From NCBI GenBank assembly GCA_934502905.1, contig CAKSVK010000188.1:1-6338 (forward strand): DNA of 6,338 nucleotides. The letters are read 5' to 3'. The position numbers and the translations under genes are program-made. Source of the stretch: an uncultured Chitinophagaceae bacterium. GTDB lineage: Bacteria > Bacteroidota > Bacteroidia > Chitinophagales > Chitinophagaceae. The notes below the pieces were generated by a model. It was not told where the DNA came from and did no database searches. It saw nothing but the letters and a program-made list of their open reading frames with translations. This document shows, piece by piece, positions 1 to 6,338 of the stretch (position 1 is its first letter; every line of letters begins with the position of its first letter).

Positions 1-2
1 AC

Positions 3-389
3 ATGGCACAGAAGCAAGTGAAGCCTACCGAGAGTGAGCTGGAAATATTACAGGTTCTATGGGATAAGCAGCAGGCAACAGTGAGGGAAGTACACGAGGA
101 GCTGGCAGCTACAAAAGACGTGGGTTATACCACCACGTTGAAGCTGATGCAGATTATGTTTGAGAAGGGGTTGGTAAGCCGGGATGATTCTTCCAAAACC
201 CATATTTACCGTCCTGCGGTGAGCCGTGAAAAAACACAGAAGCACCTGGTAGGAAAAATGATTGACAACCTGTTCTCGGGATCGCCGGCGCAACTGGTAA
301 TGCAGGCGCTGGGCAATCATAAAGCCAGTGATGACGAGCTGGAGGAAATACAAAAGCTGCTTAATGCATTAAAAAAAGATAACCCGTAA
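3..389 (+). CDS. blaI: BlaI/MecI/CopY family transcriptional repressor
   Basis: A 128-residue protein of the usual BlaI/MecI length. Residues about 7-75 form the winged-helix DNA-binding domain: the N-terminal helix carries the family pattern LEILQVLW, and residues 41-58 (GYTTTLKLMQIMFEKGLV) are the recognition helix with the hallmark Y-T-T segment. The wing holds the IYRP motif (68-71). Residues about 76-125 are the helical dimerisation region. Family members bind operators as dimers and leave DNA when cleaved after the partner sensor peptidase is activated. The partner gene starts 12 bp after this stop codon, so the two are almost surely co-transcribed. The ATG at position 3 gives the standard N-terminus (MAQKQVKPTESELEIL). 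The promoter and operator lie outside the window. Its regulon cannot be told from here; many Bacteroidota BlaI proteins have no beta-lactamase gene nearby. Confidence 0.93.
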   Translation: MAQKQVKPTESELEILQVLWDKQQATVREVHEELAATKDVGYTTTLKLMQIMFEKGLVSRDDSSKTHIYRPAVSREKTQKHLVGKMIDNLFSGSPAQLVMQALGNHKASDDELEEIQKLLNALKKDNP

Positions 390-401
390 CAACTTATTAC
401 C

Positions 402-2276
402 ATGACTGCTTTGTATCAATCACCTTTTTTGCTGGCGTTGGGCTGGGCAATTGCAGCCAGTCTCTGGCAGGTGGCTGTTCTCTGGTTCCTGTATCAACTG
501 GTTGCCGGCAGAAAGGCCACACCGGTATTCAGGCATAATTTTGCCCTGTTGCTGCTGATCGTTGCGACCACCTGGTTCGGCTATACCTTTGTACAGAAAT
601 ACAATGAACTTTCCGTTGTTGCCACAGGATCGGGATTCTCTGCCCTGAGCCTGGCTGAGCACCCGTTCAGCCTGTTCATGTTTTTGCAGGCTAAGACGCT
701 TGCCCTGCTGAACCGGTTCCTGCCTTATTTTTCTGCGGCGTACCTTATCATCCTTCTGTTACTTACCGCCCGTTTGCTAAAAGCGTGGACCTATTCCCGT
801 AAGTTGCAGTCAACGGGCTTGCTGGCGATCGATGACAAATGGATAGACCGGGTGGAGAGGTATGCCTCCCGGTTGGGTATTGTGCAGCAGGTTCGGATCT
901 ATCTGAGCGAATATATAGATGTTCCTGCTACGCTCAACTATTTTAAGCCCGTTATACTGCTGCCGGTCGCTGCTTTTAACCAGCTTACGCCCGAGCAGGT
1001 AGAGTCTGTTATTTTGCATGAGCTGGCGCATATAAAAAGAAAGGATTACCTGCTGAATATACTGGTATCCGTGATAGAGATTCTGCTTTTTTTCAATCCT
1101 TTTGTACACCTGATGACCACGAACCTGCGAAAAGAACGGGAAAACTGCTGTGATGATTTTGTGCTGCAGTTTCGTTTTGACCCCCATAGCTATGCATCGG
1201 CATTATTATCGCTGGAGCAAATGCGTATGAACAGGCTGCCTGTGACTGTGCTGGCTGCCACAGGAAACAAGAACCAGTTATTGGGCAGGGTAAAAAGGAT
1301 CATGAATGTAAAGAATAACAGCCTCAACTACGGACATCGCCTGCTGGCTTTGTTATTGGTAACTTTCATGCTGATCTCCATTGCATGGCTGGTACCCGAT
1401 GCAAAAAGCAGCCAGCAGCAGGATGACAGGGAAGCAACGCCCGGGTATACTGTTGCAGAAGTGAAAGACGAACATTCGGACACAGATGAAACCGTTATCC
1501 CCGATAAGCCCCGGCTGACACCGCAACGCGCAAATCCAAATAAACCTGTTGAAGAGTCAGCCCCGGTAGCCCGTGAAGAAGATTTCATCCTGCCTGCTCC
1601 GCCTGCAGCCCCTCAACCACCTGCGGCGCCTGACAATTTGTTAGGGCAAAAGCCTGATGACGCATACAGGCAGGCATGGGATGAGTTATACAGGTCCGAT
1701 GAACATGCTAAAGCTTTTACAAAAGGATATCGTAATAATATGGAAGGATGGGACGAACTGCCGAAGGAAACAGGAAACGAAAACCTGCTGGCTGAGCTGG
1801 AAAAAAATATCCGGATGGCAAAAGATACGGTGATGATACATTTACAGGATCAGGCCGGGCTGTGGGAACAATTGAAAAGCCTGGGACAGCTTGAACTTGA
1901 AAAATATGTAGAGCAACTGGACAATATGCGGTCTGTACCAAAGTGGAATTTTAAGTTTATTTATGATAGCGCTGCCCGTGTAATGGAGTCGGAACTGCTG
2001 AAGAAAAGAGTGGCGCCGGTGCGGGAGAAAAAGGTATTGCAAAAAAGGGATACCATACACCTGCAGGCTGTTCCTCCCAAAAAAGTAAAAAAGACCATTT
2101 GGGTCAACCGTGTTGACGATGATGCGCGGATGACTTATGCAGTGGTGTCAGGTGATGAAGCTGCATCGTTGGTCGCAAAGTCTGCCGGTATAGCCACCAG
2201 TAATACAAGATCAGCCCGGCAGCTTGTTGCCTCTCTTTCCGTGAATGATCACGATTGGGTGATCACGATTGATTAG
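402..2276 (+). CDS. BlaR1-type M56 family membrane metallopeptidase with unrecognised C-terminal region
   Basis: A 624-residue integral membrane zinc peptidase, partner of the BlaI repressor just upstream. Predicted membrane segments lie at about 9-33, 46-65, 105-127, 218-238 and 312-331. The gluzincin motif HELAH is at 206-210, and E247 in the downstream RKERENCCDD segment is the probable third zinc ligand, as in the M56 family. The catalytic part is therefore intact. After the last membrane segment come an acidic linker, a proline/alanine-rich stretch (about 398-411) and a charged, partly helical region to residue 624. I see no penicillin-binding sensor motifs (no SxxK-SxN-KTG set) and no obvious TonB C-terminal domain. 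By family knowledge it senses an envelope signal and triggers repressor inactivation; the signal here is unknown. The ATG at 402 fits the 12-bp spacing from blaI. The 3' end contains a 12-bp direct repeat. Confidence 0.9.
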   Translation: MTALYQSPFLLALGWAIAASLWQVAVLWFLYQLVAGRKATPVFRHNFALLLLIVATTWFGYTFVQKYNELSVVATGSGFSALSLAEHPFSLFMFLQAKTLALLNRFLPYFSAAYLIILLLLTARLLKAWTYSRKLQSTGLLAIDDKWIDRVERYASRLGIVQQVRIYLSEYIDVPATLNYFKPVILLPVAAFNQLTPEQVESVILHELAHIKRKDYLLNILVSVIEILLFFNPFVHLMTTNLRKERENCCDDFVLQFRFDPHSYASALLSLEQMRMNRLPVTVLAATGNKNQLLGRVKRIMNVKNNSLNYGHRLLALLLVTFMLISIAWLVPDAKSSQQQDDREATPGYTVAEVKDEHSDTDETVIPDKPRLTPQRANPNKPVEESAPVAREEDFILPAPPAAPQPPAAPDNLLGQKPDDAYRQAWDELYRSDEHAKAFTKGYRNNMEGWDELPKETGNENLLAELEKNIRMAKDTVMIHLQDQAGLWEQLKSLGQLELEKYVEQLDNMRSVPKWNFKFIYDSAARVMESELLKKRVAPVREKKVLQKRDTIHLQAVPPKKVKKTIWVNRVDDDARMTYAVVSGDEAASLVAKSAGIATSNTRSARQLVASLSVNDHDWVITID

Positions 2277-2297
2277 TTGGCGGTTTCTATATTCTAT

Positions 2298-2336
2298 TTC
2301 CACAAAAGCAGGCTTCAGGTAATTCCTGTTGTGGAA
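2298..2336 (+). terminator. Hairpin after the M56 peptidase gene, possible operon end
   Basis: TTCCACAA (2298-2305) pairs perfectly with TTGTGGAA (2329-2336), and the inner CAGG (2309-2312) pairs with CCTG (2325-2328) across a 3-nt bulge. It starts 22 bp after the stop codon. There is no T-run after it, so it is not a classic intrinsic terminator; it could be a 3'-end stabilising or attenuating hairpin. The structure is visible in the sequence; its role is inferred. Confidence 0.35.
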
Positions 2337-2409
2337 GGAGAATGATGTATACGGATATCGGTCAAAATCAACAGAACATCGAAACTTCATGCCTGCCTGT
2401 CGAATTAAG

Positions 2410-2440
2410 TTTCAGTGGAGCTGAATTGTTTACATCTTTG
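2410..2440 (+). promoter_or_regulatory. Bacteroidota-type promoter of cassette copy 1
   Basis: TTTC (2410-2413), a 19-bp spacer and CATCTTTG (2433-2440) match the Bacteroidota -33/-7 consensus TTTG-N19-21-TAnnTTTG with one mismatch in each box. The same boxes at the same spacing occur in copy 2. The expected start site is roughly 2446-2450, next to the sequence TATTGTCATCGATG that both copies share. Confidence 0.6.
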
Positions 2441-2488
2441 TATTGTCATCGATGCACAGGATACCTAAGAAAAACTGCCGCCAAAACC

Positions 2489-2661
2489 TTGAAGAACCGA
2501 AATTCAACATTATGAAAACACCAGTCCGACGATCCAAAGTAAAAGCCAGCCTGATGTCCAATGAAACTGAAATCTGATCCCTGAAAGACCGAACCAACCT
2601 TGAAAAACGATCCGGTAATCCTGTTGAAGCCAAATCCGATCCAATGAAACCCTAACCGAAG
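2489..2661 (+). repeat. Array of eight degenerate ~22-nt units inside cassette copy 1
   Basis: Units begin near 2489, 2512, 2538, 2561, 2581, 2600, 2624 and 2644 (spacings 23, 26, 23, 20, 19, 24, 20). Each has a 5' part like nTGAA(A/G) and most have a 3' part like CCGA(T/A)CC. Examples are CTGAAAGACCGAACC, TTGAAAAACGATCC, TTGAAGCCAAATCCGATCC and ATGAAACTGAAATCTGATCC. The unit at 2538 is the weakest (GTAAAAGCC...GATGTCC). Unit lengths are not multiples of three, so this is not a repeat peptide. Confidence 0.6.
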
Positions 2662-2718
2662 TAAAACAGAAAGAAAGGTATAAACAACTTAACCGCTGAT
2701 ATAACTTCAACGAATTGT

Positions 2719-2741
2719 CCCGCACCCAGGTGCGGGATTTT
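2719..2741 (+). terminator. Intrinsic terminator of cassette copy 1
   Basis: CCCGCAC (2719-2725) pairs with GTGCGGG (2730-2736) across the loop CCAG, followed by ATTTT (T-run 2738-2741). It has the same position and layout as the copy 2 terminator, and its loop-closing pair C-G is replaced by T-A there, so pairing is preserved. Confidence 0.8.
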
Positions 2742-2961
2742 GTATTGCTGAAGCTGGAATAACAATTTGGAAATAATCAATAACCCTCCGATCTCCGAAT
2801 CAAAGTCATATTGTAATTGGTATTACGACGGAAGACTTTTTTTGTGGTATTTCCTTTCAACGGAATAATGTGGCGGTCTGGCTTTTTTTGATGTTCCGCA
2901 AAATACATGGAGCCGGATACACGGGGCTGAGCCGTTACGTTACTATAGAAATCATAAAATT
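2742..2961. other. Non-coding leader region before the lipoprotein gene
   Basis: No ORF with coding character is visible on either strand. It holds two CGACGGAA/CAACGGAA-like words (2826-2833 and 2858-2864) and two T-runs (2838-2844 and 2883-2889). Neither T-run follows a convincing hairpin. No clear -33/-7 promoter for the lipoprotein gene was found; its leader just before the ATG is AT-rich with no Shine-Dalgarno site, as is common in Bacteroidota. Confidence 0.5.
2855..2869 (+). promoter_or_regulatory. Shared 15-mer upstream of the lipoprotein gene
   Basis: TTTCAACGGAATAAT differs by one base from TTTCGACGGAATAAT at 4568-4582, upstream of the OmpA-domain gene. Both sit 60-95 bp before a start codon of an exported protein on the same strand. 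It may be a regulator or alternative sigma factor site, or chance; two examples are too few to decide. Confidence 0.25.
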
Positions 2962-3639
2962 ATGAAAACCCATTTTACGCCATTGTTGTTTTTGGCGTTC
3001 CTGGCGTGTAAAAAAACAGATTCGATAGAGGGAAAGAATTGTGTGCCCTACGAGATCTCTAATAATACAGCATCCTCCATAGATCCTTTATCTTATGTCA
3101 ATTCCTGCGATGCATATTCCGGAGACCTGGTTCCCGGAGGTGCCGTATACCTGCGGGTAGATGCGAACAGCTTGCCGAATGTGCAAGGAGTGATGTGGGA
3201 AAGACTGTATGAATTACCCGTGCCGGAACAAAATCTTAGGGTGACCCCCGTTCCGGAACTGGCTGTGTTCAATGGATTCAACCCGGATGTGGCGACTTTG
3301 CTTAATTATACTAAAGTGAAATACTGGGATACCACAAAAGTGAAGCATGAAATTTCGGTATCTGTAAACGGGAGCCTTCCCAGGGGGGTAAATGGAACTG
3401 TTGTTATCAACAGTATTGCAGAAGACGGAGCCCGCCAGGTATTTAATAAATCTTTTGAGGATGGAGGCAGGCTGGAGACCGCACAAAAGATAAGTGGTCC
3501 TCCGGCAGAAGTAAAAGCGTATTGGCGTTTCTGGAAATTCAAATACCAGGATGGTCAGAAGATGATCGTAAATGGTAAATATGTTACCGAGCCTTTGGGC
3601 GAGATAGAACATACACAGGTTTTCATGGCTATTGATTAG
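2962..3639 (+). CDS. Putative lipoprotein of unknown function
   Basis: A 225-residue protein I do not recognise. The N-terminus MKTHFTPLLFLAFLACKK is a short type II signal peptide: hydrophobic core 5-15, then Cys16 followed by two lysines, a common Bacteroidota lipoprotein start. It is therefore probably a membrane-anchored lipoprotein in the periplasm or on the outer membrane. Two further cysteines (C27, C49) could form a disulfide. The mature part has many alternating polar/hydrophobic stretches (about 60-105 and 128-165) suggesting a beta-rich fold, a lysine- and aromatic-rich segment (AYWRFWKFKYQDGQK, 186-200), and ends in VFMAID. No enzymatic motif is visible. The ATG at 2962 is chosen because it places the signal peptide exactly. 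The gene stands alone, bracketed by the two direct copies of the ncRNA-like cassette, with non-coding DNA on both sides. Confidence 0.8.
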   Translation: MKTHFTPLLFLAFLACKKTDSIEGKNCVPYEISNNTASSIDPLSYVNSCDAYSGDLVPGGAVYLRVDANSLPNVQGVMWERLYELPVPEQNLRVTPVPELAVFNGFNPDVATLLNYTKVKYWDTTKVKHEISVSVNGSLPRGVNGTVVINSIAEDGARQVFNKSFEDGGRLETAQKISGPPAEVKAYWRFWKFKYQDGQKMIVNGKYVTEPLGEIEHTQVFMAID

Positions 3640-3673
3640 AACAGGTACTCAGCAATGATGCTTCAGTGATTCC

Positions 3674-3689
3674 ACGACTGCACAGTCGT
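3674..3689 (+). terminator. Small hairpin downstream of the lipoprotein gene
   Basis: ACGACTG (3674-3680) and CAGTCGT (3683-3689) form a perfect palindrome 35 bp after the stop codon. It is not followed by a T-run. A second weak stem follows: AATATC (3707-3712) with GATATT (3721-3726) around TTTTTATA. Either could mark the 3' end of the mRNA; evidence is weak. Confidence 0.3.
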
Positions 3690-3791
3690 TATCATATATC
3701 AAATGCAATATCTTTTTATAGATATTCGCCATAACAAGATCGATAAAAAACAGCCTCACATCGAAGTATAATGTTCAGCCACCGAATTAAG

Positions 3792-3822
3792 TTTCAGGGG
3801 GGCTGAATTGTTTGCATCTTTG
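3792..3822 (+). promoter_or_regulatory. Bacteroidota-type promoter of cassette copy 2
   Basis: TTTC (3792-3795), 19-bp spacer, CATCTTTG (3815-3822). Both boxes and the spacing are identical to copy 1; the substitutions in this segment fall in the spacer, two near its 5' end and one just before the -7 box (TAC in copy 1, TGC here). Confidence 0.6.
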
Positions 3823-3870
3823 TATTGTCATCGATGCACAGGATACCTAAGAAAAGCTACCGCCAAAACC

Positions 3871-4042
3871 TTGAAGAACCGAAATCCAACATTATGAAAA
3901 ACCAGTCCGACGATCCAAAGCAAAAGCCAGCCCGATATCCAATGAAACTGAGATCTGATCCCTGAAAGACCGAACCAACCTTGAAAAACGATCTGATAAT
4001 CCTGTTGAAGCCAAATCCGATCCGATGAAACCCTAACCGAAG
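3871..4042 (+). repeat. Array of eight degenerate ~22-nt units inside cassette copy 2
   Basis: Units begin near 3871, 3894, 3919, 3942, 3962, 3981, 4005 and 4025 (spacings 23, 25, 23, 20, 19, 24, 20), unit by unit the same order as copy 1. Substitutions change single positions of units without destroying their number or, apart from one base, their spacing. Confidence 0.6.
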
Positions 4043-4095
4043 TAAAACAGAAAGACATAGATCACTTAACCTCTGATGTAACTTCAAATGATTGT

Positions 4096-4121
4096 CCCGC
4101 ATTCTATGCGGGATTTTTTTT
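4096..4121 (+). terminator. Intrinsic terminator of cassette copy 2
   Basis: CCCGCAT (4096-4102) pairs with ATGCGGG (4106-4112) around loop TCT, followed by A and a run of eight T (4114-4121). This is a textbook rho-independent terminator. Confidence 0.88.
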
Positions 4122-4244
4122 ATCCGGGATGAGGTGTTTTTATGAACGTGAGCATTGCCGCCTAATATCGTTAAACAGTGACCGATGAGGCGACTAAAAC
4201 ATTTTTGAAAATGACAACCGGTATGATGATATGGTTTATTTTTT

Positions 4245-4305
4245 ATCATTCCGACGCAGAAGGAATCTGGTCATAGTGAAGGTAGATGCGTCCTTCGGCA
4301 TGACA
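4245..4305. repeat. REP-like inverted repeat element, first pair
   Basis: The forward arm ATCATTCCGACGCAGAAGG (4245-4263, continuing to 4269) faces an imperfect reverse-complement arm AGATGCGTCCTTCGGCATGA (4284-4303, continuing to 4305). Together they could form a ~60-nt hairpin. Short intergenic repeats of this CATTCCGACGCAGGAGGAATCT type are, to my knowledge, frequent in Chitinophagaceae and related genomes. A 64-codon frame running through the element reads like translated repeat and is not a gene. Confidence 0.65.
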
Positions 4306-4360
4306 AGTGGTATAACGACGTTACTACAAGAGGTCTTGTATAAGGAAGTTGTATTCAAGG

Positions 4361-4476
4361 CAGATGCTTCCTTCGTCAGCATGACAGATAGCGGTGAGGG
4401 GAACTTTTCATATTCACTACTATAAAAGACAATGCAACTTGTTTTTTGTTTGTCATTCCGACGCAGGAGGAATCTG
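4361..4476. repeat. REP-like inverted repeat element, second pair (opposite order)
   Basis: A reverse arm CAGATGCTTCCTTCGTCAGC (4361-4380, to 4386) is followed by a forward arm TGTCATTCCGACGCAGGAGG (4451-4470, to 4476). These are imperfect reverse complements of each other. With the first pair the arm order is forward-reverse-reverse-forward. The forward arms at 4245 and 4451 agree except for one or two bases. Confidence 0.65.
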
Positions 4477-4567
4477 ATAACAATGATATCTTAATTATAC
4501 AATAATAAATATCATACGTTAAGTCAATGCTGACACGTTGTTATTATTTGATAATTCTTACTGTTCT

Positions 4568-4582
4568 TTTCGACGGAATAAT
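4568..4582 (+). promoter_or_regulatory. Shared 15-mer upstream of the OmpA-domain gene
   Basis: TTTCGACGGAATAAT, one mismatch from 2855-2869. It lies 61 bp before the ATG at 4644. A possible -7 box TAGTTTTA (4605-4612) follows, seven of eight characters like TAnnTTTG counting the free positions, but no good -33 box is seen. Low confidence. Confidence 0.25.
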
Positions 4583-4643
4583 CAGAAACCTGTAAACCTG
4601 TTTGTAGTTTTACCCGTCTGTTAATAAGTAAAAATACTTGCTC

Positions 4644-5303
4644 ATGAAAAATATAATAATCATATTGCTGAGTGTCATGCTGGCGCACCTCCAGCTGCCT
4701 TCTGCGTCCACCTATCATACAACGGGGGAGATAAAGGTTAAGGACTTTCCGGTTTTACATACGGCTGAAATTACTGTATTTCCTGAAATAACAAACGAGC
4801 CGCTGTTACCGGAAAATCCTGCCGAGCCTGCAACGCCTTTTAAAAAGCCGGTAAAAGTGAAAAGTAATGCCGGAAAATTCAATGCGAAAAAATCGGTAAA
4901 CATACAATCTGCCGTAAATGTCGCCAACCGCAGTTTTCATCATCAGCTTGAAGGCAGTGAACAAATGATACTGGCGGAGAATGTGTTATTTGCTTTTGAC
5001 GATCATGAGCTGAACAACAGCGCAGATTTTAATAAGATACTGGCAATGGCTGATGAACTGATCTTTAACCCTGACCTGAAGATCAGTCTGTCGGGTAATG
5101 CGGACAATATCGGGAATGATTACTATAATGATGTGCTTTCTTATAACCGTGTTTCAAATGTTAAAGCTTACCTGTTGGAAATAGGTGTATCCGAAACACA
5201 GATCATGGTTTCATTCAATGGAGAAAACAATCCTGTAGCTTCCAACGAAACGGAGGAAGGCCGCTCGGAGAACCGCAGGGTGGAGATGTTCCTATACCAG
5301 TAA
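4644..5303 (+). CDS. Secreted OmpA-C domain (peptidoglycan-binding) protein
   Basis: A 219-residue exported protein. The ATG at 4644 is preferred over the TTG at 4638, since it gives a clean signal peptide MKNIIIILLSVMLAHLQLPS with probable cleavage near residues 20-22. Residues about 25-105 are a low-complexity, Pro/Lys/Asn-rich linker (PENPAEPATPFKKPVKVK). Residues about 110-217 form an OmpA-C domain: FAFDD near its start, then GNADNIGNDYYNDVLSYNRV, in which D154 and R169 match the conserved Asp and Arg that bind diaminopimelate in this family, and the closing ENRRVEMFLYQ. Family role: non-covalent attachment to peptidoglycan. There is no N-terminal beta-barrel, so it is not a full OmpA porin; it resembles the small OmpA-domain proteins common in Bacteroidota. 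It appears monocistronic, with repeats upstream and a 170-bp gap downstream. Confidence 0.85.
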   Translation: MKNIIIILLSVMLAHLQLPSASTYHTTGEIKVKDFPVLHTAEITVFPEITNEPLLPENPAEPATPFKKPVKVKSNAGKFNAKKSVNIQSAVNVANRSFHHQLEGSEQMILAENVLFAFDDHELNNSADFNKILAMADELIFNPDLKISLSGNADNIGNDYYNDVLSYNRVSNVKAYLLEIGVSETQIMVSFNGENNPVASNETEEGRSENRRVEMFLYQ

Positions 5304-5368
5304 CCGGGAACCGTTGAGCCGCGGAGAGGTTGAGAAAAGTGAAATCTTTTAATATCTACATATTTTAT

Positions 5369-5386
5369 TTATCCGGACCCGGATAA
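5369..5386. other. Palindrome downstream of the OmpA-domain gene
   Basis: TTATCCGG (5369-5376), AC, CCGGATAA (5379-5386) is a perfect 8-bp inverted repeat, about 65 bp after the stop codon. No T-run follows on either strand, so it may be a weak terminator, a protein site between the two genes, or neither. Confidence 0.3.
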
Positions 5387-5442
5387 GGGTTGGGTCATTC
5401 CTGCGGCAGCGCATATTTAACACCAAAGTTGAAATTAAGCGT

Positions 5443-5473
5443 TATTTTTGCACTCCAAAATTTAAAGAGGAAC
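5443..5473 (+). promoter_or_regulatory. Promoter -7 box and ribosome binding site of the amidase gene
   Basis: TATTTTTG (5443-5450) is an exact match to TAnnTTTG. The matching -33 box is poor. AAAGAGGAAC (5464-5473) directly before the ATG is a purine-rich ribosome binding site. Together they place transcription start near 5456-5460, giving a short leader. Confidence 0.5.
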
Positions 5474-6338
5474 ATGGCAAAAGTAAACGTAGGACTGGTG
5501 CAGATGACCTGCAGCGCCAATAAAGAGGAAAATCTTCAAAAGGCGATAGAAAAAGTGAAAGAGGCCGCGGCAAAAGGTGCCCGGATCGTTTGTCTGCAGG
5601 AATTGTTTACCTCTCTCTATTTCTGTGATGTGGAAGATTACGAACATTTCAGGCTGGCAGAATCTATTCCCGGGCCGTCAACAGAAGCGCTTGCAAAAGT
5701 GGCTAAGGAAGCAGGTGTTGTTATTATAGCTTCCCTGTTCGAAAAAAGGGCAGAAGGCTTGTACCATAATACTACAGCCGTGCTGGATGCAGATGGCGCT
5801 TATCTCGGCAAATACCGAAAAATGCACATCCCGGACGATCCGGCTTATTACGAAAAGTTTTATTTTACGCCCGGGGACCTGGGTTACAAGGTGTTTAAGA
5901 CAAAATTTGCCACCATCGGCGTATTGATATGCTGGGATCAGTGGTACCCCGAAGCAGCCCGTATCACGGCCCTTATGGGAGCCGAAATCCTGTTTTATCC
6001 TACTGCCATCGGCTGGGCAACTTCCCAGGACGAGGCTACCAATACAGAGCAATATAATGCATGGCAAACCATGCAGCGCAGCCATGCTGTTGCCAATGGA
6101 GTACATGTGGTAAGCGTGAACAGGACCGGCTTTGAGCAAGATGGTGCGATGAAGTTCTGGGGTGGTTCCTTCGTTGCCAATCCTTTCGGTACGGTGTTGT
6201 ACCAGGCCCCTCACGACAAAGAAGAGATACATGTGATAGAGATCGATACAGCAAAAACGGATAGCTACCGTACACATTGGCCGTTCCTGAGAGACAGGAG
6301 GATAGACAGTTATGAGCCCATTACCAAAAGGTATATTG
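5474..6338 (+). CDS. aguB: N-carbamoylputrescine amidase, 3' end cut by window
   Basis: The frame is open from the ATG at 5474 to the window edge (288 codons, no stop), close to the ~290-300 residues usual for AguB, so only a few residues are missing. It is a nitrilase-superfamily (C-N hydrolase) enzyme with the catalytic triad in place: E43 in CLQELF, K116 in KYRKMHIPDD and C153 in LICWDQWYPE. The segments FTPGDLGYKVF, PTAIGW and NRTGFE, and the late HWPFLRDRRIDSY (268-280), fit the AguB group better than general nitrilases. It hydrolyses N-carbamoylputrescine to putrescine, CO2 and ammonia in the cytoplasm, the last step of the agmatine route to polyamines. The agmatine deiminase partner aguA, often adjacent in Bacteroidota, is not in the window and could lie downstream. 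It has its own promoter-like box and ribosome site. Confidence 0.92.
   Translation, partial: MAKVNVGLVQMTCSANKEENLQKAIEKVKEAAAKGARIVCLQELFTSLYFCDVEDYEHFRLAESIPGPSTEALAKVAKEAGVVIIASLFEKRAEGLYHNTTAVLDADGAYLGKYRKMHIPDDPAYYEKFYFTPGDLGYKVFKTKFATIGVLICWDQWYPEAARITALMGAEILFYPTAIGWATSQDEATNTEQYNAWQTMQRSHAVANGVHVVSVNRTGFEQDGAMKFWGGSFVANPFGTVLYQAPHDKEEIHVIEIDTAKTDSYRTHWPFLRDRRIDSYEPITKRYI

What the first reader, a model, noticed from the sequence alone, without database searches (positions are those of the whole stretch)
2401..4121. Two paralogous promoter-body-terminator cassettes: a candidate new non-coding RNA family
Seen: two direct copies (2401-2741 and 3783-4121), about 95% identical over 273 bp, each with the same Bacteroidota-type promoter boxes at 19-bp spacing and each ending in an intrinsic terminator on the same strand. 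Neither carries a conserved ORF: a 1-bp indel shifts the only plausible small frame, and the substitutions before it are all amino-acid changing. Inference: these are small RNA genes of roughly 290 nt in a multicopy family, not a decayed gene or an IS. I do not recognise the family.
Basis: partly seen in the sequence, partly recalled or inferred. Interest (0 to 1): 0.75.

Follow-up and report, generated by a model that had tools for sequence, protein, structure and literature searches.

The report
Relay-controlled family of repeat-rich regulatory RNAs
The window holds two copies of a predicted non-coding RNA gene belonging to a multi-copy family found across one bacterial family (Chitinophagaceae); in many relatives such an RNA gene sits beside the genes of a signalling relay that likely switches the family on, and the RNAs are predicted to soak up RNA-binding proteins.

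Summary
In detail: 2401-2741 and 3783-4121 are two promoter-body-terminator units, 95% identical in the two main ungapped blocks, with no conserved reading frame and no Rfam match above threshold. They belong to a large family: a promoter model matches in 64 of 394 Chitinophagaceae genomes (some weakly), with 3-9 matches in each of 16 genomes re-searched. The promoter carries two TCGAA boxes 21 bp apart; the strict pattern gives 80 sites against 5 for the reversed control. In 54 selected bodies, unstructured RNA is enriched in CCAATCCT / CTTTGAAA / AAAACC words; a 3' helix and a terminator often follow. The 21-bp period suggested a LytTR response regulator. A REC-LytTR gene then proved to be the upstream neighbour in 16 of 60 family rows, with kinase (3 of 3 loci scanned) and Hpt genes (2 of 3). 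Its orthologue is in 33 of 38 promoter-positive genomes against 39 of 356 others (p = 8e-23). Best reading: RNA output of a LytTR phosphorelay, predicted to act as a multi-site decoy for an RNA-binding protein. CsrA and Hfq were not found (0 of 20 relatives each); RRM proteins were in 20 of 20. Expression, regulator binding and decoy function are untested.

The parts
2379..2404 (+). Copy A: tandem TCGAA boxes (2379-2383 and 2400-2404), 21-bp period; predicted LytTR response-regulator site
   Evidence: Same spacing in the 60-row alignment A3; strict pattern 80 sites against 5 reversed-control sites in 394 genomes; letters checked
2433..2440 (+). Copy A: -7 box CATCTTTG; predicted start about 2444-2449
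   Evidence: CATCTTTGTATTGTCA conserved; start position inferred
2449..2657 (+). Copy A: unstructured A/C-rich body with TGAAA/G sites (2490, 2513, 2562, 2568, 2582, 2601, 2625, 2645) and A/G-ATCC sites
   Evidence: 8 TGAA[AG] against 3.1 in shuffles, 1 of 300 shuffles as high; [AG]ATCC 6 against 1.4, 0 of 300 (stretch 2449-2700); family enrichment; no fold beyond shuffles
2658..2708 (+). Copy A: 3' helix, GAAGU (2658-2662) with ACUUC (2704-2708) and CAG (2667-2669) with CUG (2696-2698)
   Evidence: Both helices in the minimum-energy fold; equivalent helix in 21 of 28 family members against 0.66 in shuffles. The window rows do not pass that test, which asks for a 4-bp inner helix
2717..2741 (+). 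Copy A: intrinsic terminator
3761..3786 (+). Copy B: tandem boxes TCGAA (3761-3765) and CCGAA (3782-3786), 21-bp period
3815..3822 (+). Copy B: -7 box CATCTTTG; predicted start about 3826-3831
   Evidence: start position inferred
3831..4038 (+). Copy B: unstructured A/C-rich body with the same repeated motif
   Evidence: TGAA[AG] 7 against 2.6 in shuffles, 3 of 300 as high (stretch 3831-4075); fold no better than shuffles
4039..4085 (+). Copy B: 3' helix, GAAGU (4039-4043) with ACUUC (4081-4085); an inner CAG/CUG pairing (4048-4050 with 4073-4075) is possible
   Evidence: Outer helix in the minimum-energy fold; there the inner pairs are 4047-4049 with 4077-4079 instead; family helix
4094..4121 (+). 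Copy B: intrinsic terminator

Best explanation
The two units are two copies of a predicted non-coding RNA gene of a multi-copy Chitinophagaceae family, likely transcribed when a LytTR-type response regulator binds the pair of TCGAA boxes in front of each, and predicted to act as a multi-site decoy that soaks up an RNA-binding protein. Shown by the calls: the family, the 21-bp box spacing, the unstructured motif-rich body, the 3' helix in most members tested, a terminator, the REC-LytTR gene beside the RNA in many relatives with kinase and Hpt genes in the loci scanned, and the tight co-occurrence of that regulator with the promoter. Inferred: that the regulator binds the boxes (expected from the spacing before the gene was found); that phosphate flows kinase to Hpt to REC-LytTR; and that the body titrates a protein, most likely one of the RRM proteins, and so changes the fate of that protein's mRNA targets, as CsrB-type RNAs do for CsrA.
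For: Family: model R1 matches in 64 of 394 family genomes at E <= 0.01, the weakest including chance matches; 3-9 promoter matches (E <= 0.001, both RNA classes) in each of 16 re-searched genomes. Promoter: 80 strict sites against 5 control sites; 46 of 86 distinct strict sites in the fetched relatives' loci have a motif-rich 300 nt behind them (>= 3 [TC]GAAA and >= 2 [AC]ATCC) against 764 of 20,000 random stretches of these loci. In 295 genomes drawn from the class, 6 of the 294 other than G360 have one match each, with 2 control matches. Body: in 54 selected bodies CCAATCCT 29 against 0.8, CTTTGAAA 24 against 1.4, TGAAAA 123 against 41.2; folding z +0.63, n = 49. 3' helix: 21 of 28 against 0.66 in shuffles, maximum 3 in 300 rounds. 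Regulator: one protein family of about 229-233 aa is the upstream same-strand neighbour in 16 of 60 rows, 15 genomes; Pfam REC + LytTR in 3 of 3 loci scanned, Hpt in 2 of 3, PAS/HisKA kinase in 3 of 3. Orthologue in 72 of 394 genomes; in 33 of 38 promoter-positive and 39 of 356 promoter-negative genomes, p = 7.6e-23; with stricter cuts 32 of 38 (p 1.5e-25) and 28 of 38 (p 2.2e-23). With the full site lists, 27 of the 72 have an RNA promoter 30-755 bp downstream on the same strand and none has one upstream or on the other strand within 1,500 bp. Of 20 further regulator-positive genomes, 19 have by eye an RNA-like unit directly downstream. Repeats of LytTR regulatory systems are mostly separated by 12 bp, close upstream of the -35 (PMC6193735, passages). 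CsrA 0 of 20, Hfq 0 of 20, RRM 20 of 20.
Against: No expression data, and no binding data for regulator or RRM protein. Nothing singles out RRM proteins except the failure to find CsrA and Hfq. Motif spacing is irregular, so it is a degenerate array, and the bodies counted were chosen partly for the motif. 39 of 72 regulator-positive genomes lack the strict promoter, and 26 of the 64 genomes with an R1 match lack the regulator. The regulator cut is mine: scores fall gradually from 474 to 274 bits before the gap. In the helix test 6 of the 28 rows are near-identical orthologues; without them it is 15 of 22. The window's own genome is not held, so its regulator was not seen. HATPase_c was not reported for one kinase (L178), whose frame is cut by the end of the fetched stretch; Pfam did not recognise the 134-aa frame of L123 as Hpt.
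Confidence: 0.6

Rival explanations
1. Base-pairing RNAs: the repeats pair with other RNAs, either mRNA leaders or the class II RNAs (core AUUAGGAUAAAGGAUCA) that sit behind the same promoter, so that the family is an RNA-RNA sponge circuit.
For: Class II RNAs share the promoter and occur in many of the same genomes. Words of 7 complementary to class II pieces are 2-3 fold above shuffles in the pooled 54 class I bodies for 4 of 7 core pieces (67 against 21, 73 against 24.9, 58 against 27.6, 84 against 33.5) and for an eighth, downstream piece, GAGGUUG.. (45 against 19.3).
Against: 3 of the 7 core pieces (G381, G080, G337) show little or none: 32 against 24.3, 4 against 9.6, 8 against 11.2. The count pools bodies of all genomes, not pairs from one genome. 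Duplex energies were only modestly better than shuffles in the pairs finished before timed out (z from +0.2 to -3.0).
Confidence: 0.27
2. The same RNA family, but switched on by a regulator other than the linked LytTR protein; the linkage reflects a shared location only.
For: 39 of 72 regulator-positive genomes lack the strict promoter; 26 of 64 genomes with an R1 match lack the regulator, though many of those matches are weak; a TCGAA pair is not by itself diagnostic of LytTR.
Against: Co-occurrence p = 7.6e-23; 27 adjacencies all on one side and strand; 21-bp period as in LytTR regulatory systems.
Confidence: 0.1
3. A small mobile or passively amplified repeat (MITE-like) or a decayed gene, without a function of its own.
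For: Multicopy; in the window the duplication ends sharply at the functional unit; some relatives hold tandem copies.
Against: Copies in one genome are mostly highly divergent (by eye) while promoter spacing, body motif and 3' helix persist; position beside the regulator kept across genomes; no inverted repeats flank the units. In the regulator-linked RNAs 9 of 26 pairs covary, though 7 of these lie in the terminator.
Confidence: 0.03

Closest known systems
CsrB/CsrC and RsmX/Y/Z decoy RNAs (GacS/GacA or BarA/UvrY controlled)
   Same: Several dispersed non-coding RNA genes per genome, tied to a two-component regulator, each with many copies of a short motif (CsrB sequestering CsrA and GacS/GacA control: abstract starts of PMC5027483 and PMC5109040 in the listing; shared upstream box and Rsm details recalled).
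   Different: CsrA not found in relatives (0 of 20); motif is AUCC / UUUGAAAACC in an unstructured body, not GGA in hairpin loops (loop position recalled); regulator is REC-LytTR with a separate Hpt, not a GacA-type HTH (recalled).
FopS / GibS sRNAs of Bacteroides with RbpB (PMC11697453, passages read)
   Same: Multicopy paralogous sRNAs in Bacteroidota; an RRM protein is the known partner there and the leading candidate here.
   Different: FopS is a Bacteroidaceae family with a 5' seed (R1') in a single-stranded stretch plus terminator and sigma-ABfr promoters. Here 200-430 nt with repeated motifs, TCGAA boxes and linked LytTR genes.
LytTR-controlled RNAs: AgrA-RNAIII, VirR-VR-RNA (recalled)
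   Same: A LytTR response regulator drives a regulatory RNA from a promoter with direct repeats.
   Different: Those are single RNAs in Firmicutes, RNAIII also codes a peptide; here a dispersed multi-copy family without a conserved frame, with an Hpt gene beside the regulator.
Qrr sRNAs of Vibrio (recalled)
   Same: Several paralogous sRNAs under one phosphorelay with an Hpt protein; one copy next to the regulator gene.
   Different: Qrr act by Hfq-dependent pairing; Hfq not found in 20 relatives; regulator is sigma-54 dependent LuxO.

Membership tests
CsrB/RsmZ decoy RNA family | CsrA/RsmA protein encoded in the genome | tested here: not met
   PF02599 in 0 of 20 RNA-bearing relatives, positive in 3 of 14 control genomes; the window's own genome not held
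CsrB/RsmZ decoy RNA family | Many copies of GGA in hairpin loops | tested here: not met
   Bodies fold worse than shuffles, z +0.63, n = 49; enriched words are AUCC / UUUGAAAACC
CsrB/RsmZ decoy RNA family | RNA titrates a translational regulator protein | not testable with these tools
   Needs pull-down or binding assay
LytTR response-regulator regulon | Direct repeats with about 12-bp gap (21-bp period) just upstream of the promoter | tested here: met
   Spacing kept in 60-row A3; 80 against 5 sites; rule from PMC6193735 passages, there stated for LytTR regulatory system operons; the repeat is seen as a 5-bp core, its full length is not known
LytTR response-regulator regulon | REC-LytTR gene associated with the promoter | tested here: met
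   in relatives; not seen for the window's own genome
LytTR response-regulator regulon | The regulator binds the repeats | not testable with these tools
   Needs EMSA or ChIP
FopS/GibS sRNAs | R1 seed sequence near the 5' end, Rfam-modelled short RNA | tested here: inconclusive
   No Rfam match above threshold and the paper says FopS was deposited in Rfam, but I did not check that the model is in release 15 and did not search for the seed itself
Any Rfam 15 family | Score above gathering threshold | tested here: not met
   Window: one match, 20.5 bits against 49.5; 10 loci none; 15 loci one, 24.2 bits against 297
Mobile element / MITE | Terminal inverted repeats, transposase | tested here: not met
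   No inverted pair flanks the units; Pfam of 5 window genes shows no transposase
Small protein gene | Conserved frame with synonymous bias | tested here: not met
   frames shorter than shuffled on average, frame-breaking indel, replacement changes

The most novel reading that the evidence does not exclude
Chitinophagaceae run a post-transcriptional circuit of their own: a kinase-Hpt-LytTR phosphorelay fires a dispersed fleet of unstructured motif-array RNAs that titrate RRM proteins, plus a second RNA class (AUUAGGAUAAAGGAUCA core) behind the same promoter that counter-pairs with the arrays, a Csr/Rsm counterpart that arose without CsrA and without Hfq.
Probability: 0.35. Interest if true: 0.9.

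Novelty: new variant of a known kind. Interest (0 to 1): 0.78.

Why it matters
How Bacteroidota do global RNA-level control without Hfq and CsrA is an open question (my view, not searched), and RRM proteins have few known ligands outside Bacteroides (recalled). This gives a dispersed RNA regulon with a named promoter box, a named regulator gene and a candidate protein partner, each testable in a few experiments. No Rfam 15 family matches it above threshold, and no title or abstract start listed in the paper searches describes it.

Tried and rejected
Exact 23-base pattern of copy A in genome contigs: no match. Copy A by BLAST over 394 genomes matched in 4 genomes: the promoter part in 3, an unrelated 22-nt match in the fourth; that promoter part led to everything else. 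Rfam anti-hemB match over the copy B terminator: 20.5 bits against a threshold of 49.5, rejected as chance; MIR856 in L278 rejected likewise. Whole-RNA fold: no better than shuffles. Class I/class II pairing by duplex energy timed out and was replaced by the word count; support is partial. A strictly tandem repeat was rejected, since the spacing is irregular. Of the 83 hits I chose by hand 54 bodies and 60 promoter rows (A3), partly on their content of the body motif; the 29 and 23 hits left out are other RNA types, hits inside coding sequence or before ordinary genes (for example L163, L168, L177, L179, L186, L189, L193, L195) and unclear ones. So the motif counts are on selected rows; the count (46 of 86 strict sites, chosen by promoter only) is not. 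A4 misaligned the window rows; the helix test was used instead. In A6 two rows (L218, L222) were given on the wrong strand, so its column statistics are not used. The adjacency count used a partial site list into which I had put weak rows lying next to the regulator; it was repeated with all 113 rows and all 80, with the same 27 genomes. Genomes behind named records searched with R2 (25): several matches only in the MAGs SJ21 (G001, 9), SJ882 (G685, 3) and REEB371 (G125, 3); single weak matches in Filimonas zeae, Limnovirga soli, Flavobacterium fontis and Spirosoma fluviale; none in the other 18, Lacibacter cauensis among them.
Full report
Observation. The two copies are real. Ungapped blocks of 118 and 159 nt are 95% identical, a 3' block of 53 nt 81%, and the unit aligns at 90.9% over 341 columns with gaps. 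Each unit ends in a terminator on the + strand. The only plausible small frame is broken by a 1-bp indel, and the three substitutions before it change the amino acid (alignment, read by eye). The copies sit between ordinary genes: BlaI-type repressor and M56 peptidase upstream, a 225-aa frame without a Pfam match between the copies, an OmpA-domain protein and a carbon-nitrogen hydrolase downstream. The window's own genome is not held.

Finding relatives. An exact 23-base stretch of the unit is absent from genome contigs. A BLAST search of 394 genomes of the family of G003 (Filimonas zeae, family Chitinophagaceae) with copy A matched in 4 genomes; in three the match was the first 48-58 nt, the promoter. 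Behind that promoter each of the three had an A/C-rich stretch of 300-400 nt ending in a terminator, although the bodies aligned poorly. A sequence-only model of the promoter and 5' end (R1, 5 sequences) then matched in 64 of 394 genomes at E <= 0.01. The weaker of these include ordinary gene promoters and chance matches. The 394 genomes are an even draw from a larger group.

Promoter. Sixty hand-chosen units align almost without gaps: AATCGAAG, then TCGAATNAAGTT 21 bp further on, then CATCTTTGTATTGTCA. The strict pattern TCGAA-N17-CGAA-N29-ATCTTT has 80 sites in 38 of 394 genomes, against 5 sites for the pattern read backwards; one locus of G241 is counted twice because it lies on two contigs. 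Chosen by promoter alone, 46 of 86 distinct strict sites in the fetched relatives' loci have a motif-rich 300 nt behind them, against 764 of 20,000 random stretches of the same loci. Over 295 genomes drawn from the class, G360 included, 6 of the other 294 have one match each, with 2 control matches; this suggests that the promoter is confined to the family, but kinship of those genomes is not told. A second model (R2, 60 sequences) gives 3 to 9 matches at E <= 0.001 in each of 16 genomes known to carry the promoter, both RNA classes together.

Body. In 54 bodies (14,071 nt, selected as told in Tried and rejected) the enriched words are CCAATCCT (29 against 0.8 in dinucleotide shuffles), CTTTGAAA (24 against 1.4), TGAAAA (123 against 41.2) and AAAACC (122 against 44.5), at irregular spacing. 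In the window, TGAA[AG] occurs 8 times in copy A (3.1 in shuffles) and 7 times in copy B (2.6). The bodies fold worse than shuffles (mean z +0.63, sd 1.10, n = 49), the last 110 nt slightly better (z -0.33, sd 1.26), and the longest + strand frames are shorter than in shuffles (mean 27.0 against 34.3 aa; longest 79). So the body looks like exposed single-stranded RNA, not code.

3' end. Of 28 members with a CUGA..UUC arm before the terminator, 21 have an upstream arm that pairs with both of its halves (GAARU.. and UCAG), against a mean of 0.66 in shuffles (maximum 3 in 300 rounds). Six of the 28 are near-identical orthologues that all pass; without them it is 15 of 22. L124 has GAAGUUU with AAACUUC where most have GAAAUC with GAUUUC. 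The window copies keep the outer helix as GAAGU with ACUUC in their minimum-energy folds, but have only 3 inner pairs and do not pass that test.

Regulator. A 21-bp period of short direct repeats just upstream of a promoter recalled LytTR response regulators to me; I noted this as an idea before looking at neighbours. One protein family of about 229-233 aa then proved to be the nearest upstream same-strand gene in 16 of 60 family rows, in 15 genomes. Pfam finds a receiver and a LytTR domain in 3 of 3 loci scanned; the 134-aa frame that overlaps it upstream is Hpt in 2 of 3; the divergent gene is a PAS/HisKA kinase in 3 of 3, HATPase_c in 2 of 3. The same gene order is seen in the frames of the other 6 of 9 loci listed. 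The open-access paper on LytTR regulatory systems gives direct repeats mostly separated by 12 bp, a minority by 11 or 13, close upstream of the -35 (PMC6193735, passages).

Co-occurrence. A profile of eight such regulators was searched in the 394 genomes: 72 have a best hit of 274 bits or more; the next values are second copies at 248 and 230 and then 214 bits. Scores within the 72 fall gradually from 474, so the cut is my choice. The orthologue is in 33 of 38 promoter-positive genomes and in 39 of 356 others (Fisher p = 7.6e-23); at cuts of 345 and 400 bits it is 32 and 28 of 38 (p = 1.5e-25 and 2.2e-23), and for the 64 genomes it is 38 of 64 against 34 of 330 (p = 1.3e-16). With all rows, 27 of the 72 have an RNA promoter 30-755 bp downstream of the regulator on the same strand; none has one within 1,500 bp upstream or on the other strand. 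The 5 promoter-positive genomes without the regulator (G106, G132, G193, G263, G302) have no class I body behind the match; four of the five run into a protein-length frame. I fetched the downstream region for 20 of the other 45 regulator-positive genomes; by eye 19 have an RNA-like unit there, three of them short (L283, L285, L286), and L284 none. In 11 of the 20 a pattern finds a more structured RNA with GYGACGGU and GAARUYC. In ten of these the outer helix AAUGAARUCC/GGAUUUCAUU, an inner AUGRGU/ACYCAU hairpin and the terminator fold together; 9 of 26 pairs have a change on both sides, 7 of these in the terminator.

What it likely does. The pieces are: regulated, dispersed, unstructured, carrying a short motif many times, with a helix and terminator at the 3' end. 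That is the anatomy of a decoy RNA. In 20 RNA-bearing relatives CsrA was not found (0 of 20), nor Hfq (0 of 20), while RRM proteins were found in all 20, 2 to 12 matches per genome. In Bacteroides the RRM protein RbpB binds a multicopy sRNA family in single-stranded regions (PMC11697453, passages). RRM proteins are therefore my candidate partners; this is inference. The chief rival is base pairing: a second class of RNAs, roughly 130-200 nt, with the core AUUAGGAUAAAGGAUCA stands behind the same promoter, and class I bodies are 2-3 fold enriched in complements of 4 of 7 core pieces tested and of one further piece, not of the other 3.

Comparison. It works like CsrB/RsmZ or Qrr but is not shown to be a member of either: no CsrA, no GGA loops, no Hfq found. 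It matches no Rfam 15 family above threshold. Searches of the held open-access library (listings only) showed no title or abstract start that describes it; subscription papers and preprints are not held. I rate it a new variant of a known kind: a two-component-linked multicopy regulatory RNA family, with a LytTR/Hpt relay and a new motif array, in a phylum where little of this is known.

Noticed in passing
L169, L240, L185, L183, L153, L229, L170, L226, L245, L171, L172, L184 (G241, G001, G033, G080, G155, G360, G381, G337, G281): A second RNA class behind the same promoter (CATCTTTACATC), roughly 130-200 nt, core AUUAGGAUAAAGGAUCA or GAUAGGUAACGAUAGAAUCC, some with GAGGUUGUU.AAUCCAUCGCC; two units lie close together in 5 of these 12 loci.
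   Followed up: partly
L270-L276, L278, L279, L281, L282 (downstream of the LytTR regulator): A more structured RNA with GYGACGGU and GAARUYCG, outer helix, inner hairpin and covarying terminator, in several loci followed by a second, motif-rich unit.
   Followed up: partly
L189 3095 and 4998, L195 2925, L177 2988: Ordinary protein genes whose promoter continues CTTTGTATTGTCAATRACGACAA, a possible 5' stem-loop that some of these RNAs share.
   Followed up: no
L118, L128, L129, L130, L135, L150, L133: In six loci the gene downstream of the RNA is a 499-aa protein that looks like ATP synthase beta subunit; in four loci (L118, L133, L135, L150) the upstream gene looks like an aquaporin. Names recalled from sequence, not tested.
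   Followed up: no
window 4234-4279 and 4441-4486: Two copies (83%) of a TCATTCCGACGCAGRAGGAATCT repeat, REP-like in look, next to copy B; 4691-4708 is partly its inverse.
   Followed up: no
L001 7763-10864 against window 1-6338: In the nearest named relative, stretches similar to the window's BlaI and M56 genes lie just upstream of the hydrolase gene, leaving little room for the RNA units, the 225-aa frame and the OmpA gene, so this stretch seems gained or lost.
   Followed up: partly
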